DNA from: Bdellovibrionales bacterium
GTDB taxonomy: Bacteria; Bdellovibrionota; Bdellovibrionia; Bdellovibrionales; UBA1609
Direction of reading: 5' to 3'
Assembly: GCA_023301025.1 (NCBI GenBank)
Contig: JALZUR010000046.1
Coordinates: 1 to 59,758, forward strand
Length of the DNA: 59,758 bases
The notes under the pieces were generated by a model. It did no database searches, was not told the origin of the DNA, and saw nothing but the letters and a program-made list of their open reading frames with translations. Shown piece after piece: positions 18,306 to 50,640 of the stretch. The translations under genes and the position numbers were made by a program. Position 1 is the stretch's first letter; each line of letters starts with the position of its first letter.

Positions 18306-19103
18306 TCAGTCAACAGAAGTATCAGTGGCAGAACCAATTGAAGATTCTGTTGTAGGGTTAAGAGTAGCAGAATTTGTCGAAGATGTGCTCACAGGAGAAT
18401 TAAATCTATAACCCACACCCCTAATTGTTTCTATAACGTGAGAGTATTCTTTTAGTTTTTTTCTAAGTCCAAAAATATGAGTGTCAACGGTTCTTCCAGT
18501 AACATTAATTTCAGTCCCTTGCACTTTAGAAATAAGTGTTTCTCTTGTTAAAACACAACCAAGCTCACTCATAAGATGTTTCAAAAGCAAAAACTCAGAG
18601 CGTGTAAGGTTTAACCTTTCATCTTTTAAATAAACTTCAAAAGCTTTTGGATCTAACTTTAGATCACCAACATTTAAAAAGCCTGATTTATCAGGTTTGT
18701 AAAAAGCCCCTGAGTTTTTCTTTTGAGACCTTCTCATCACAGCATTGATTCTTGCAACTAAAACAGACTCTTCAAAAGGTTTCGTTACGTAATCGTCTGC
18801 CCCTAACTCTAAGGCTTGAATGATATGAACTGGGGTTGTCAGCGCCGTTACGAAAATAACAGGCTTAGTTTTAATGTCTAAATCACTTGAAGATTTCATC
18901 CACCTTAAAAAATCTACACCATTTTCATCAGGCAGCATCCAGTCTAGAAGAATTAAGTCAAACTCTTCATTGCAAATAGAGTCTCTTGCCTCAGTGGTGT
19001 TGGTAGCCACTTTGACTTTATGCCCGTAGGTTTTTAACTGTATACTCACCAGATGGGCTAAACTTGCCTCATCCTCTACTAATAAAAGCTTATATCCTAT
19101 CAT
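18306..19103 (-). CDS. OmpR/PhoB-family response regulator
   Basis: The receiver domain starts YKLLLVEDEASL, with acidic pocket E10-D11, phospho-acceptor D54 in LILLDWMLPDENG, and the switch Lys in DYVTKPFEES. A winged-helix DNA-binding domain follows (LNLTRSEFLLLKHLM and GRTVDTHIFGLRKKLKE, then IETIRGVGYRF). A Ser/Thr-rich tail of about 30 residues is added after the canonical end. The ATG at 19103 is preferred over the TTG at 19109. It is transcribed with the histidine kinase downstream and is divergent from pdxJ. Confidence 0.94.
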   Translation of the reverse strand: MIGYKLLLVEDEASLAHLVSIQLKTYGHKVKVATNTTEARDSICNEEFDLILLDWMLPDENGVDFLRWMKSSSDLDIKTKPVIFVTALTTPVHIIQALELGADDYVTKPFEESVLVARINAVMRRSQKKNSGAFYKPDKSGFLNVGDLKLDPKAFEVYLKDERLNLTRSEFLLLKHLMSELGCVLTRETLISKVQGTEINVTGRTVDTHIFGLRKKLKEYSHVIETIRGVGYRFNSPVSTSSTNSATLNPTTESSIGSATDTSVD

Positions 19104-19164
19104 AATCAATGTAGACCACCTTCACACATTGGCTTCAAGATTTTTCTTTGATACAAACACAATT

Positions 19165-41339: not shown

Positions 41340-42056
41340 CTAGCTGCTTATCATGTTCTTGTAAATTTCATAAAAGCTTAAAGGCTTTAAACTTGCTCCA
41401 CCCACTAAAAATCCATTTACGTCCTTTATACTGTATAGATCTTTAGCATTTTCTGGTTTTACGCTTCCACCATAAAGCAGAGGTGTTTTAGGATTTGAAA
41501 TTTTACCCCTTAGCCAGTCATGAACCTCTTCAACTTCATTAGGGCTAGCTGTCTTACCAGTTCCAATAGCCCACACAGGCTCATAAGCAATTATAATTTG
41601 ATCTAGATTTACATTTAAAAGACCTTCATCAAGCTGTTTTTCAAGTGTTTTAAATACAGCATCAGATTCACGTTCTTCTAAAGTTTCTCCAATACAGACA
41701 ATAGGAGTAAGACTCAGATCAAGAGCATGTTTTACTTTTAGGTTTACAGTTTTGTCTACTTCGTTAAAAAGACTCCGTCTTTCACTGTGACCAACAAGTG
41801 TAAATTTAGCACCCATTTCTTTTAAAACTTCAGCTGAGTTCTCACCTGTAAATGCGCCGGATTTTTCAAAGTAAATATTTTGAGCTCCCCACTCCAAACC
41901 ACTATTTTCAAAGCGGTATGCTGATAAGGCTTGTGGAAAAAAAACAAAAGCTTTTTTATATTTATCATCAATAAAATCATTAAACTCTTTTAAAAAAATT
42001 TCTGTTTCATTTGGGCTTTTATTAAGCTTCCAATTGCCAAAGCATAAAGGCGACAT
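41340..42056 (-). CDS. tpiA: Triose-phosphate isomerase
   Basis: The 238-residue TIM barrel interconverts dihydroxyacetone phosphate and glyceraldehyde 3-phosphate. Residues FGNWKLNK (catalytic Lys), FTLVGHSERRSLF (catalytic His), IAYEPVWAIGTGKTAS (catalytic Glu) and PLLYGGSVKPENA are all present. It starts at the base after the pgk stop, so gap-pgk-tpiA is one tightly packed unit in glycolytic order. Confidence 0.97.
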   Translation of the reverse strand: MSPLCFGNWKLNKSPNETEIFLKEFNDFIDDKYKKAFVFFPQALSAYRFENSGLEWGAQNIYFEKSGAFTGENSAEVLKEMGAKFTLVGHSERRSLFNEVDKTVNLKVKHALDLSLTPIVCIGETLEERESDAVFKTLEKQLDEGLLNVNLDQIIIAYEPVWAIGTGKTASPNEVEEVHDWLRGKISNPKTPLLYGGSVKPENAKDLYSIKDVNGFLVGGASLKPLSFYEIYKNMISS

Positions 42057-43565
42057 TTAACTCTCCTCTGGGGGTTTTTTAACAGCTGATCTTCTTATAG
42101 TGGTTTTATTGATTATAGTTTGAGTTGTTTGAGGAGGCTTTGGTTGAGTTGATTCAGTGCTAGAGCCAAAGTTACTTTCATCTCTTTTTTGACCATAACC
42201 TGTCTCTTTGGCGTTGAAAGTTTGATTGCTACCAAAGGATTTTTTTGAATCATAAGGCTTTTTAACATCACTTTTTAAATTATAAGGGGAGTTCTTATCA
42301 AACGGTCTACCTTCAGCTTCACTTTGTTCAAGTTCTTCATCCGAAAGAGTTTCTAACGTGTATCTTGTTTTTTCTAAAAGTTCTTTTCTTTTAATTCTTA
42401 AGGCCTCTAAACCAGGAAGATTTCGTCCTTCTAAAAAAGCAAGAGACGCTCCACCACCTGTTGATACATGATCAAATTCACCTTTAAACTTTACAGCCGC
42501 AGCCGCACTGTCGCCACCGCCAACTATTCTTTTAGATGACATTTTTGAAAGACCTTCACAAAGACTTTTTGTTCCAGATTCAAATGCAGGGTTTTCAAAA
42601 ACACCCATAGGGCCATTCCATAAAACAGTTTCACATTCACCTAAAGCTTTTAAATAGGTATCAATAGTTCTAGGCCCTACATCAAGACCCATTTTAGATT
42701 CTGGGACAAAACCACTTAAAGTGGCTTTTGTATCTTCAATACTATCAGCCACGTAAAAGTCTTCAGGAAGAAAAAGTTTTTTACCTCTTTGTTCTAATCG
42801 TTTGATTATACTCTTACATGCGTGCACTAAATCATCTTCAACTAATGAAGATCCAACAGGCACCGACTTTGCTTTTAAAAACGTAAATGCCATGGCTCCA
42901 CCGATAACAAAAACATCTGTCTTCTCCATCAATGTATCAATCATTGGGAGTTTATCAGAAACTTTGGCTCCACCAAGTATAAGACCAAAAGGACGTTTAG
43001 GTTCTTCTTTAACTTGGCTTAAAGCTTGAATTTCTTTTTCTATTAGAAAGCCCGCTGCTCTTTCTTTTACAACTTCTGGAAAAGCCACAACACTCGAATC
43101 ACTTCTATGACATACGCCAAAAGCGTCATTTATGTATATATCAGTGTAGCTTCCAATTTTTGAAGCTAGCTTTCCAGTTTTTTCTTTTTCATCTGTAGAA
43201 AACCTTAAGTTTTCTAAAAGCAAAACCTTACTTTCATTAAGAGTTTTAACTAAAGCACTAGGAGCATCTGAAAGAGGATCATCGACAAAAATAACATCTA
43301 GATCAGTAAGCTTTTGTAAAGTCTCAGCCACTGGAGCTAAAGAGAATTGAATATCTTTCCTGTTTTTTGGTCTTCCTAAATGACTGCCAAGTACAACTTT
43401 AGCACCTTCTTGTAAAAGATAGTTTAGTGTTGGAAGGGCTGCTTTAATACGCGTATCATCACTGACCTCTCCGTCTTTCAAAGGACAGTTAAAATCGACT
43501 CTTAAAAAAACTCTTTTGTTCTTAAACTCTATGTCTTTAAGAGTCTGAATATTGTTCAGAAGCAT
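42057..43565 (-). CDS. pgk: Phosphoglycerate kinase with extra C-terminal tail
   Basis: The catalytic part (about 1-392) is normal: FLRVDFNCPLKDGEV, GSHLGRP, LLLENLRF, LILGGAKVSDKLPMI, NGPMGVFENPAFESGT and GGGDSAAAAVKF. It makes ATP from 1,3-bisphosphoglycerate. A further 110 residues follow where the enzyme usually ends: a short acidic helix (TLETLSDEELEQSEAEG), then a long Ser/Lys/Asn/Gln/Pro-rich stretch without hydrophobic core, ending with basic residues (TTIRRSAVKKPPEES). The tail is probably disordered. Total length is 502 instead of about 390-400. It sits one base after gap. Confidence 0.96.
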   Translation of the reverse strand: MLLNNIQTLKDIEFKNKRVFLRVDFNCPLKDGEVSDDTRIKAALPTLNYLLQEGAKVVLGSHLGRPKNRKDIQFSLAPVAETLQKLTDLDVIFVDDPLSDAPSALVKTLNESKVLLLENLRFSTDEKEKTGKLASKIGSYTDIYINDAFGVCHRSDSSVVAFPEVVKERAAGFLIEKEIQALSQVKEEPKRPFGLILGGAKVSDKLPMIDTLMEKTDVFVIGGAMAFTFLKAKSVPVGSSLVEDDLVHACKSIIKRLEQRGKKLFLPEDFYVADSIEDTKATLSGFVPESKMGLDVGPRTIDTYLKALGECETVLWNGPMGVFENPAFESGTKSLCEGLSKMSSKRIVGGGDSAAAAVKFKGEFDHVSTGGGASLAFLEGRNLPGLEALRIKRKELLEKTRYTLETLSDEELEQSEAEGRPFDKNSPYNLKSDVKKPYDSKKSFGSNQTFNAKETGYGQKRDESNFGSSTESTQPKPPQTTQTIINKTTIRRSAVKKPPEES

Positions 43566-43566
43566 A

Positions 43567-44562
43567 TTATAATTTAGCCCAAAAATTAGCTAAATCTACC
43601 ATGCGTTTTGAAAAGCCAAACTCGTTGTCATACCAAGATACAACTTTGATCATGTTCGTTCCAATAACCATAGTTGACGCTAAATCAACAATAGAGCTTT
43701 CAGATCTTCCCATAAAATCACGACTCACTAATGGGGCCTCTTCTACAGCCAAAACACCTTTTAATTCACCTCTTGAAGCCTCTGTTAAAAGCTGATTGAC
43801 GTCTTTAACGCTAGCGGATTTTTTAGAAGTAAAAGTAAAATCAACTAATGAAACATTTGGGGTCGGAACTCTAACAGAAAAGCCATCAATTTTACCTTCT
43901 AATTCTGGAAGAATCTTACCAACAGTCTTAGCTGCACCTGTTGTAGTAGGAATAATTGATTCGGCAGCTGCACGTGCTCTTCTTAAGTCTTTGTGATTGC
44001 TGTCTAAAATTCTTTGGTCATTGGTGTATGAGTGAATAGTTGTCATTAAACCACTTTCAATCCCAAGACTGTTATTTAAAACTTTAGCCAGTGGAGCCAA
44101 ACAGTTGGTTGTGCAAGAGGCATTACTTAAAATTTTCTGTTCTTTTGTAATACCTTTATGGTTAATGCCATAAACAACGGTAAAATCTGCACCCTCTGCA
44201 GGGGCAGAGACAACAACTTTTTTAGCACCTGCTTTTAAATGCTTTTCAATATCTTCACGCTTCTTAAAAGCACCTGTACATTCAAAAACTACATCAACAC
44301 CCCATTCACCCCATGGGATGTTTTCAGGGTTTTTATCACCAAATAGCTTTACACTTTTATCGCCAACTTGGATTGCATTTTCAGTGTGCGACACCTCTTT
44401 TCCAAAGGGTCCTAAAACACTGTCCCACTTAAGTAAGTGTGCAGAAGTTTTTGGAGACATGAGTGCATTAAGACCAACAAAATCAAGTTCATCAAAACCT
44501 GCTCTAAAAACTGTTCGTCCAATTCTACCAAACCCATTTACACCCACTCTTAACTTAGACAT
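43567..44562 (-). CDS. gap: Glyceraldehyde-3-phosphate dehydrogenase
   Basis: The 331-residue enzyme oxidises glyceraldehyde 3-phosphate with NAD+ and phosphate. NGFGRIGRTVFRAG is the NAD fold, SNASCTTNCLAPLAKVL contains the catalytic Cys, and RRARAAAESIIPTTTGAAKTVGK and WYDNEFGFSKRMVDL complete the signature. It opens the gap-pgk-tpiA unit. AAGGAG precedes the ATG at 44562. A promoter that overlaps a palindrome lies directly upstream. Confidence 0.98.
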   Translation of the reverse strand: MSKLRVGVNGFGRIGRTVFRAGFDELDFVGLNALMSPKTSAHLLKWDSVLGPFGKEVSHTENAIQVGDKSVKLFGDKNPENIPWGEWGVDVVFECTGAFKKREDIEKHLKAGAKKVVVSAPAEGADFTVVYGINHKGITKEQKILSNASCTTNCLAPLAKVLNNSLGIESGLMTTIHSYTNDQRILDSNHKDLRRARAAAESIIPTTTGAAKTVGKILPELEGKIDGFSVRVPTPNVSLVDFTFTSKKSASVKDVNQLLTEASRGELKGVLAVEEAPLVSRDFMGRSESSIVDLASTMVIGTNMIKVVSWYDNEFGFSKRMVDLANFWAKL

Positions 44563-44584
44563 CTATTCAGGTCTCCTTCATATT

Positions 44585-44608
44585 TTGTGTATAGAAATCT
44601 ATACACAA
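44585..44608. promoter_or_regulatory. Palindromic operator over the gap promoter
   Basis: The arms TTGTGTATAGA (44585-44595) and TCTATACACAA (44598-44608) are perfect inverted repeats of 11 bases with a two-base spacer. The site lies 23-46 bases upstream of gap and covers its -10 hexamer. That is the usual place for a dimeric repressor. No transcription regulator gene adjoins, so the protein is unknown. Confidence 0.7.
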
Positions 44609-44626
44609 CATGAAGGGCACACTCAA
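44598..44626 (-). promoter_or_regulatory. Sigma70-type promoter of gap-pgk-tpiA
   Basis: On the minus strand TTGAGT (44626-44621), a 17-base spacer and TATAGA (44603-44598) form a good housekeeping promoter. The start point would fall near 44591, within the palindromic operator, leaving a leader of about 29 bases with the AAGGAG ribosome-binding site. Confidence 0.6.
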
Positions 44627-44643
44627 GAGCTGCTTAAGATTTA

Positions 44644-45426
44644 CTAGGACTTGGATTTAATCTTTGAAAAAAGGCTTTCGGTGTTCTTTTGACTGAGCTC
44701 ACCTATCTTCTCAACTGAAAGCTCTTTTAAGTCTGCCAAAACAGCTGCTGTATGAATCATCAAGGCTGAGTGGTTCTCTTTTCCTCTAAAAGGTACTGGG
44801 GCCAAGTAAGGCGCATCAGTCTCCACATGAAAACGATCAACAGGCACAACCTCTTTAAAGGTTTGTCTTAAGTCTTTAGCAGATTTAAATGTGACAATTC
44901 CACTAAAAGATAGATTAAAACCTAAGGACAAAGCCTCTTCTGCCAATTTTCTTGAACCTGAAAAGCAGTGGAGAATACCCTTAACTTTACCAGAAAAGCT
45001 CTTTAAAATCTCTATGGTCTCAGGCTCAGCGTCTCTTGTATGAATCTGCACGGGAAGCTTTAACTCTGAAGCCTTCTCCATTTGCTCAATAAATACTGAT
45101 TTTTGCACCTCTTTTGGGGAGCTCTCATAATAAAAGTCCAAGCCAATCTCTCCAACAGCTACAACTTTTTCTTCTTTTAAATGGGCCCACATAAAATCCT
45201 TAGCTAAAATAAAATCTTTAGCCTCATGGGGATGAACCCCTAAGGTGCAAAAAACCTCAGGGTGCGTGTTTGCCAAGTCTAAAACTACAGGATGATCTTC
45301 TGAGTTGGTCCCAATATTTATGAATCTTTCAACACCTTGCTCTTTAGCCTTAGCAATAGCCTCAGCTGGAGTTTGATTTTTTAAAAAATTTAAGTGTGTG
45401 TGAGTATCAATCCAGCCTTTAAACAT
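44644..45426 (-). CDS. tatD: TatD-family deoxyribonuclease
   Basis: The 260-residue metal-dependent hydrolase has the TatD metal ligands: WIDTHTHLNF near the start, VAVGEIGLDFYYESS, PVQIHTRDAEPETIEIL, GILHCFSGS and RFHVETDAPYLAPVPFRGKEN. Members act as 3'-5' DNases and have been tied to DNA repair and to D-aminoacyl-type hydrolysis. It lies downstream of tmk and holB, the same order found in E. coli (tmk-holB-ycfH). Spacing after holB is 73 bases. Confidence 0.96.
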   Translation of the reverse strand: MFKGWIDTHTHLNFLKNQTPAEAIAKAKEQGVERFINIGTNSEDHPVVLDLANTHPEVFCTLGVHPHEAKDFILAKDFMWAHLKEEKVVAVGEIGLDFYYESSPKEVQKSVFIEQMEKASELKLPVQIHTRDAEPETIEILKSFSGKVKGILHCFSGSRKLAEEALSLGFNLSFSGIVTFKSAKDLRQTFKEVVPVDRFHVETDAPYLAPVPFRGKENHSALMIHTAAVLADLKELSVEKIGELSQKNTESLFSKIKSKS

Positions 45427-49557: not shown

Positions 49558-50640
49558 CTAGTAATCTGAAAGATAATCAATACGTTCAGGTATCCAAGGT
49601 CTTACAACACTTGAAAAGTCTTTTTCAAGTGGAAACTCACCTTCGGGTACAAGCCCTACCGAAGGTTTATAGTCTTTTTGAATAAGCTTCATATCAATCA
49701 AAAGAGGACGCAATAGTTCATCAGCAGTATTAGACAATCGACTTCTTTTTGCTAGTAAATCATAGGCTTTTTCTAACTGAAAAGGTTTAAAATTATAAAA
49801 ATCAACTAGACTTTTGGCGACGTCTTTAACACCTTCTAAGTTTAAAAAGCCCCTTTGAAAAAGATCCAATGCAACTTCAAAACTTGTCTCAACGGCCATA
49901 AAACGACGACCGTATTTTCTATAGTATTCAGGATCTGTATCGACAGCTAAGTTTATGTAAACCCTGTGAACAGGATCAAAACAATCTCTTTGATCTCTTA
50001 ACTCTAAGATTAAATCAATCTGATCTTCTAAAATGGAAAACTCTTTTAATAAACATCTTGTTTCTTTATCTGTTAATTTATGCGAACAAATATCTGAGAA
50101 CAAAGAGTAGATAGTAGCATCTGACTCGCTGTCATCTCCCCAACAGATCATTTTTGTGTTTTTAGAGATTAACAGTCTGAGTTCCATCAAAGCTTGAATC
50201 TTGAAACCTATATGATTTGTTAACCTTGACCATCTTCCAAAATTTAAATTTTTTAAATTGTCTTTCGTGTAAAAACCATAAGGTAGAATTCGATCATGAG
50301 TCCATTTCTCAAAGATTTTCTCCTGCAATTGCGGCGGAGAGGCTGAGATAAAAAAAATAGGGAATGGGTTATTACATTTAGCTAAACTTCTTACAAGCTG
50401 ATCAGTACCTGGTACATTTCGCTTTTTTACCCCTTGTTCAAAAATAATCTTAATCATTTTTCTAAATCCACTAAAATCAGTATCTAGATAAGTCTTATCT
50501 AGATCCCAAACAAATATATAATCCGAATCTTTAATCTCATCTAAAGATCTATATAAAAAGGTCACAACATCTTTTCTTGTGCTTTTAATAGGTTTTTGTA
50601 GCTGTTTTTTTCTGGCGAACATAGAAATATAATTTATCAT
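49558..50640 (-). CDS. APP1-like (DUF2183) phosphatase-domain protein
   Basis: The 360-residue protein has a HAD-type catalytic motif, YIFVWDLDKTYLDTDF (D46, D48), and FPIFFISASPPQLQEKIFEKW as motif II, then MICWGDDSESD as the late acidic motif. That set and spacing match APP1-type phosphatidate phosphatases (DUF2183), which act on phosphatidate or similar lipids, though the family is variable. The C-terminal 150 residues are helical and unrecognised. No signal peptide. It is divergent from the DUF3047-like gene (71 bases between starts). Confidence 0.65.
   Translation of the reverse strand: MINYISMFARKKQLQKPIKSTRKDVVTFLYRSLDEIKDSDYIFVWDLDKTYLDTDFSGFRKMIKIIFEQGVKKRNVPGTDQLVRSLAKCNNPFPIFFISASPPQLQEKIFEKWTHDRILPYGFYTKDNLKNLNFGRWSRLTNHIGFKIQALMELRLLISKNTKMICWGDDSESDATIYSLFSDICSHKLTDKETRCLLKEFSILEDQIDLILELRDQRDCFDPVHRVYINLAVDTDPEYYRKYGRRFMAVETSFEVALDLFQRGFLNLEGVKDVAKSLVDFYNFKPFQLEKAYDLLAKRSRLSNTADELLRPLLIDMKLIQKDYKPSVGLVPEGEFPLEKDFSSVVRPWIPERIDYLSDY

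What the first reader, a model, noticed from the sequence alone, without database searches (positions are those of the whole stretch)
44585..44626. Promoter with overlapping palindromic operator controls gap-pgk-tpiA
A TTGAGT-N17-TATAGA promoter and a palindrome with 11-base perfect arms and a 2-base spacer overlap at the -10 and the predicted start. This is a clear design for repression of glycolysis. The cognate regulator is not in the window and the palindrome does not match a motif I recognise such as CggR.
Basis: partly seen in the sequence, partly recalled or inferred. Interest (0 to 1): 0.55.

Follow-up and report, generated by a model that had tools for sequence, protein, structure and literature searches.

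The report
RNA hairpin masking gap ribosome site
The palindrome in front of a glycolysis operon of a Bdellovibrio relative is better read as the tip of a longer RNA hairpin, which would hide the ribosome-binding site on messages running in from the gene before it, than as a docking site for an unknown repressor.

Summary
The palindrome is real: TTGTGTATAGA-N2-TCTATACACAA, 44585-44608, just before gap-pgk-tpiA, over a weak promoter match. The genome has no GntR, Crp or Rex match; its single TetR gene has a different palindrome near its likely start.

As RNA it is an 18-bp hairpin (44575-44616) masking AAGGAG, the strongest fold of 55 gene starts in the window (z -5.2). The -10 lies in the left arm. 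RNA reading through from tatD would hide the ribosome site; RNA from the local promoter would expose it. That is the published phage T4 gene e/I-TevI arrangement. Masking hairpins of unrelated sequence lie before gap in most of one related genus and in one genome of another family, but not in most relatives.

The promoter match is no better than chance and there are no transcript data. Best reading: promoter-nested, SD-masking hairpin insulating gap from read-through (0.5). Operator: 0.2.

The parts
44585..44608 (.). 24-bp palindrome TTGTGTATAGA-N2-TCTATACACAA, upper part of the hairpin
44575..44616 (-). RNA hairpin, 18 bp with a 2-nt bulge: left arm 44616-44599, loop 44598-44595, right arm 44594-44586, bulge 44585-44584, right arm 44583-44575
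44573..44578 (-). gap Shine-Dalgarno AAGGAG, 4 of 6 bases in the right arm and the rest mostly paired further out
44598..44603 (-). -10-like TATAGA (4 of 6), in the left arm and first loop base
   Evidence: chance-level match
44621..44626 (-). -35-like TTGAGT (4 of 6), outside the hairpin
   Evidence: chance-level match
44590..44592 (-). transcription start expected from the -10 position (inferred by spacing)
   Evidence: inference; folds of RNAs from here
43567..44562 (-). gap, glyceraldehyde-3-phosphate dehydrogenase, ATG at 44560-44562
42057..43565 (-). pgk
41340..42056 (-). tpiA
44644..45426 (-). tatD-type gene, same strand, source of possible read-through; no terminator-like site found between it and gap

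Best explanation
The palindrome is the upper part of an 18-bp RNA hairpin that masks the gap Shine-Dalgarno. RNA reading in from tatD (and the tmk and holB genes before it) contains both arms and would be translated poorly at gap. The local promoter has its -10 in the left arm, so RNA started there lacks that arm, leaves the ribosome site open and is translated well. The hairpin thus ties gap-pgk-tpiA expression to its own promoter, whatever flows in from upstream. Shown by computation only: the hairpin, its masking of the SD, and release of the SD when the left arm is missing. Inferred: that the promoter is used, that read-through occurs, and that translation responds.
For: Fold -32.6 kcal/mol, z -5.72; lowest z of 55 gene starts in the window; none of 190 SD starts in 370 kb of the same genome is as stable. 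The outer arm, complementary to the SD, is matched by 10 of 4000 random and 53 of 4000 shuffled left flanks. SD AGGAG mean unpaired probability 0.08 in RNA from the tatD stop, 0.60-0.63 in RNAs starting at 44603-44590; truncated RNA -5.0 kcal/mol, z 0.49. tatD lies upstream on the same strand with no terminator-like site between. SD-masking hairpins with other sequence before gap in genus g37 (mean z -2.9 of 23 loci; 88.6% of cells paired) and in G052 (z -5.5). The same arrangement is described for T4 e, soc, 49 and I-TevI (PMC3014915, PMC2988022, passages).
Against: The promoter match is at chance level and no transcript data exist. The SD-side complementarity is only p about 0.003-0.013. No homologous hairpin with covariation exists for this sequence; outside g37 and this genome 84 gap starts show no clear tendency (mean z -0.21, 6 below -2; controls +0.08). 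In g37 129 of 500 shuffles reach the number of double-changed pairs. In that genus the outermost pairs fall in the -10 and start codon, so their conservation has other causes. The last two SD bases remain mostly paired even in short RNAs. A perfect 11-base inner repeat is also what an operator would look like.
Confidence: 0.5

Rival explanations
1. DNA operator: a dimeric repressor binds the 24-bp palindrome over -10/+1 and blocks gap-pgk-tpiA transcription, through a single-target regulator outside the families tested.
For: Perfect 11-2-11 symmetry, placed over the -10 and the expected start. Core matches 27 against 16 for the reversed control at up to 3 mismatches, a slight excess.
Against: Single copy in the genome, no match in 46 other family genomes, chance-level in the phylum (3 of 367 others against 3 genomes with the reversed control). 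No GntR, Rex or Crp match; one TetR gene with a different palindrome. No dedicated regulator next to the operon among 57 window ORFs scanned; the only DNA-binding regulator domain is an OmpR-type response regulator 25 kb away. The repeat extends asymmetrically into the SD. MarR, LysR, RpiR, Rrf2, LacI and other families were not searched genome-wide.
Confidence: 0.2
2. Another RNA role of the same hairpin: an RNase processing or stabilising site between tatD and gap, or a leader element opened by a protein, ligand or heat.
For: Stable hairpin between two co-directional genes; two other starts of this genome with z near -5 also mask the SD, an AhpC-type and a pilin-like gene, classes that are usually strongly expressed (recalled).
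Against: No Rfam family reaches its cut-off. 18 continuous pairs are very stable for a thermometer (inference). No conserved loop or bulge sequence among relatives.
Confidence: 0.18
3. Chance: an accidental inverted repeat without function.
For: Perfect repeats with arms of 11 or more are common in this AT-rich genome (0.37 per simulated window; 18 in 370 kb). No relative shares it.
Against: Position in an 81-base gap plus extension into the SD; lowest z of 55 starts; comparable hairpins before gap in g37 and G052.
Confidence: 0.09
4. Inverted pair of DnaA boxes by which DnaA represses gap.
For: Each arm's CTATACACA differs from TTWTNCACA only at its first base (consensus quoted in PMC5124646); TATACACAA also occurs in the sequence between dnaA and dnaN (read).
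Against: The B. bacteriovorus box is NN(A/T)TCCACA (PMC5124646, passages); the arms read TACACA where that asks for TCCACA. The likeness was found after the fact among many possible motifs.
Confidence: 0.03

Closest known systems
Phage T4 gene e, soc, 49 and I-TevI leaders (PMC3014915, PMC2988022, passages seen)
   Same: Hairpin masks the SD in long transcripts; a promoter in the 5' strand of the hairpin gives RNA that cannot form it.
   Different: Chromosomal housekeeping operon instead of phage late gene; sigma-70-like, unproven promoter instead of T4 late promoter; read-through and effect not measured; no common descent claimed.
   Same: SD-masking hairpin with a -10-like GATATT in the left arm before gap.
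   Different: Sequence unrelated; right arm reaches the start codon; a terminator-like repeat lies just upstream there, none here.
CggR-type operator of the gapA operon of Firmicutes (recalled)
   Same: Proposed repression of a gap-pgk-tpi operon.
Rex operator (TTGTGA-like inverted repeat, recalled)
   Same: Ends TTGTG...CACAA.
   Different: 24 bp instead of about 18; no Rex DNA-binding domain in the genome.

Membership tests
T4 gene e-type promoter-nested SD-masking hairpin | SD held in a stable helix in the long transcript | tested here: met
   computed only:
T4 gene e-type promoter-nested SD-masking hairpin | A promoter whose start removes the 5' strand of the helix | tested here: inconclusive
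   -10-like TATAGA in the left arm, but 8-of-12 matches occur 1.5 times per 81 bases
T4 gene e-type promoter-nested SD-masking hairpin | Short transcript leaves the SD open | tested here: met
   computed only; last two SD bases stay mostly paired
T4 gene e-type promoter-nested SD-masking hairpin | Long transcript exists and is poorly translated | not testable with these tools
   no transcript data for this genome
DNA operator of a regulon | Further copies at other genes of the genome | tested here: not met
   one copy at up to 3 mismatches
DNA operator of a regulon | Conserved before the same gene in relatives | tested here: not met
   0 of 46 other family genomes; no same-genus genome held
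DNA operator of a regulon | Candidate regulator gene present | tested here: inconclusive
   0 GntR, 0 Rex, 0 Crp, 1 TetR with other palindrome; other families not searched genome-wide
Rex regulon | Rex DNA-binding domain (PF06971) in the genome | tested here: not met
   control found in 7 of 14 genomes
CggR operator | CggR gene or its operator motif | not tested
   no search made
Intrinsic terminator | Hairpin followed by a T run | tested here: not met
   not listed on either strand; sequence
DnaA box pair | Match to the B. bacteriovorus box NN(A/T)TCCACA | tested here: not met
   arms carry TACACA (box from PMC5124646)
Known RNA family (Rfam 15) | Match at the family's gathering score | tested here: not met
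   two hits to animal RNA families, both far below cut-off

The most novel reading that the evidence does not exclude
Bdellovibrionales lineages have repeatedly evolved, with unrelated sequences, a hairpin before gap that nests the promoter and masks the ribosome site, so that central glycolysis is translated only from its own promoter: the T4 lysozyme arrangement as a recurrent design for a housekeeping operon. The AhpC-type and pilin-like genes of this genome would be further cases.
Probability: 0.25. Interest if true: 0.6.

Novelty: new member of a known kind. Interest (0 to 1): 0.36.

Why it matters
If true, gap-pgk-tpiA here is governed by which promoter makes the message rather than by a repressor, an arrangement I found described for T4-type phages. 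It would also warn that palindromes at promoters close to a start codon can be RNA elements rather than operators. The test is simple: one reporter with two transcript lengths.

Tried and rejected
Operator regulon: searched the site and a shorter core in the own genome, family, phylum and viral contigs; rejected as main reading. Candidate regulators: GntR, TetR, Rex and Crp searched; the TetR gene has its own different palindrome. Terminator: no T run. Known RNA family: two sub-threshold hits only. DnaA: see rivals. A general SD-masking hairpin before gap in all relatives: rejected, since outside g37 and this genome 6 of 84 regions are below z -2.

Literature: no paper held all of Bdellovibrio, transcription factor, glyceraldehyde-3-phosphate dehydrogenase and operator. 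Searches for read-through/SD/internal promoter, gapA with an SD hairpin and poorly translated bacterial mRNA isoforms gave none; one search gave one review on small RNAs, not read; one search listed papers by title and abstract only, none followed. These are word searches of open papers only, so they do not show that the arrangement is unreported in bacteria. Of PMC3627812 (Bdellovibrio starts mapped in attack phase only; the word glyceraldehyde does not occur in its main text), PMC3014915, PMC2988022 and PMC5124646 I saw passages, not whole texts.

Rows dropped: two loci whose gap start the script did not find (L094, L178; 108 of 110 used). In the g37 alignment of 18 sequences, four loci identical in that stretch (L149, L150, L152, L157) and L104, which has a different leader; leaving out L104 favours the structure. 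One search used 25 shuffles and one search used 40 per start, so those z values are rough. The phrase '70 of 73' printed mixes denominators; the correct count of loci with tatD within 400 nt upstream is 70 of 108, a lower bound because some loci hold little upstream DNA.

Full report
WHAT IS THERE. The window belongs to a 2.03-Mb genome in 55 contigs; the nearest named relatives of its gap protein are Bdellovibrionales or Bdellovibrionaceae MAGs at 60-63% identity. On the minus strand lie tatD (44644-45426), an 81-base gap, gap, pgk and tpiA. The palindrome TTGTGTATAGA-N2-TCTATACACAA is at 44585-44608 as stated.

IS IT MORE THAN CHANCE. The word is unique in the window at up to 3 mismatches, but perfect repeats with arms of 11 or more are not rare here: 0.37 per simulated window and 4 in the real one, of which two are terminator-like and one is inside a gene, and 18 in 370 kb sampled from the same genome. 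Its place in an 81-base gap next to a start codon makes it notable. The promoter hexamers match 8 of 12, which this window offers about 1.5 times per 81 bases of strand.

THE OPERATOR READING. The whole genome holds one copy at up to 3 mismatches. A 16-position core gives 27 sites at up to 3 mismatches against 16 for the reversed control. Of the four next-best sites three are inside genes and one has no long ORF over it. None of 46 other family genomes has the site. In the phylum 3 of 367 other genomes match, each at 3 mismatches, as many genomes as match the reversed control. The genome lacks GntR, Rex and Crp matches and has one TetR gene; near that gene's likely start is TATCTTGAC-N6-GTCAAGATA, a different palindrome. 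Of 57 window ORFs scanned against Pfam, one carries a DNA-binding regulator domain, an OmpR-type response regulator at 18306-19109.

THE HAIRPIN. Folding 44550-44650 as RNA gave the lead: the palindrome is the upper part of an 18-bp stem, CCUUCAUGUUGUGUAUAG-AUUU-CUAUACACA-(AA)-AUAUGAAGG, at 44575-44616, whose outer right arm runs into AAGGAG, the gap Shine-Dalgarno. The 2-nt bulge breaks the two-fold symmetry that a DNA-binding dimer would need (inference); RNA tolerates it. With core and right flank fixed, 10 of 4000 random left flanks and 53 of 4000 shuffled ones fold as well, so the extension is significant at about 0.003-0.013, not overwhelming. Among 55 gene starts of the window gap is the extreme, z -5.2. 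Among 190 Shine-Dalgarno starts in 370 kb of the same genome none is as stable, and one comes level in z.

HOW IT WOULD WORK. The -10-like hexamer is in the left arm and the start expected from it lies near 44591 (inference by spacing). RNA beginning at the tatD stop codon masks the Shine-Dalgarno (mean unpaired 0.08); RNA starting anywhere from 44603 to 44590 exposes it (0.60-0.63; the last two bases stay mostly paired). RNA beginning at 44591 has no notable structure (-5.0 kcal/mol, z 0.49). This is the design described for T4 genes e, soc, 49 and I-TevI, where long RNAs are masked and, for e and I-TevI, local late promoters give RNA lacking the 5' strand (passages). Not shown: promoter use, read-through, and effect on translation.

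RELATIVES. I saw no shared sequence at gap starts outside single genera, but structure partly recurs. The typical leader there is GATATT-GAGTGGGTTT-loop-GAGCTCACTC-ATG. Pair counts on 18 distinct sequences: 88.6% of cells paired (4 of 500 shuffles as high; slid controls 36-56%), two pairs with double changes in three cells, and several G-U variants, which suit RNA better than a DNA site. But 129 of 500 shuffles reach the two double-changed pairs, 22 of 500 the covariation score, and relatedness inflates the rest. Genome G052 of another family has a hairpin with 13-base arms spanning the Shine-Dalgarno and ATG, z -5.5. Outside g37 and this genome there is no clear general tendency: mean z -0.21, 6 of 84 below -2, against 4.5% of controls. 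tatD lies within 400 nt upstream of gap on the same strand in 70 of 108 loci (distances listed there).

OTHER GENES OF THIS GENOME. Three of 190 sampled starts reach z -4; two of them mask the Shine-Dalgarno, an AhpC/TSA-family gene (L208) and a gene with a weak Flp-pilin match below the Pfam cut-off (L222; there the hairpin also resembles a terminator).

VERDICT. Observation confirmed; interpretation partly supported at most. Most likely a promoter-nested hairpin that hides the gap ribosome site on read-through RNA (0.5). Rivals: an operator of a single-target regulator (0.2), another RNA role (0.18), chance (0.09), DnaA (0.03). A new member of a known kind if true, interesting mainly because it would sit on central glycolysis of a bacterial chromosome.

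Noticed in passing
42057-43565 (-): The pgk frame is 502 aa but the PGK domain covers residues 9-381; about 120 residues of Ser/Thr/Lys/Pro-rich tail follow.
   Followed up: no
50482-50504: Perfect 11-base-arm palindrome ATCTAGATAAG-T-CTTATCTAGAT inside the coding frame 49558-50640.
   Followed up: no
L095, L108, L110, L147-L165: In genus g37 a conserved terminator-like repeat AAAGCCAGTCTA...TAGACTGGCTTTTT stands directly upstream of the gap promoter region.
   Followed up: partly
L208:10090-10215: AhpC/TSA-family gene with a bulged hairpin (AAAACTCC/GGAGTTTT plus an inner stem) that masks its Shine-Dalgarno, z about -5.2.
   Followed up: partly
L222:14540-14600: Ribosome site of a small pilin-like gene lies inside a terminator-like hairpin followed by a T run.
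   Followed up: partly
L145:1684-1707: The only TetR gene found in the genome has TATCTTGAC-N6-GTCAAGATA near its likely start, a candidate own operator.
   Followed up: partly
L226:2861-2890: 30-bp perfect palindrome TCAAAACTGTTCCACGTGGAACAGTTTTGA, whose centre resembles a parS site (likeness recalled), near other start-region hairpins with TGTTCCA.
   Followed up: no
44561-44629 and 43493-43548 (-): Sub-threshold Rfam hits to animal mir-1912 and SNORD112, chance likenesses driven by hairpin shape or composition.
   Followed up: no
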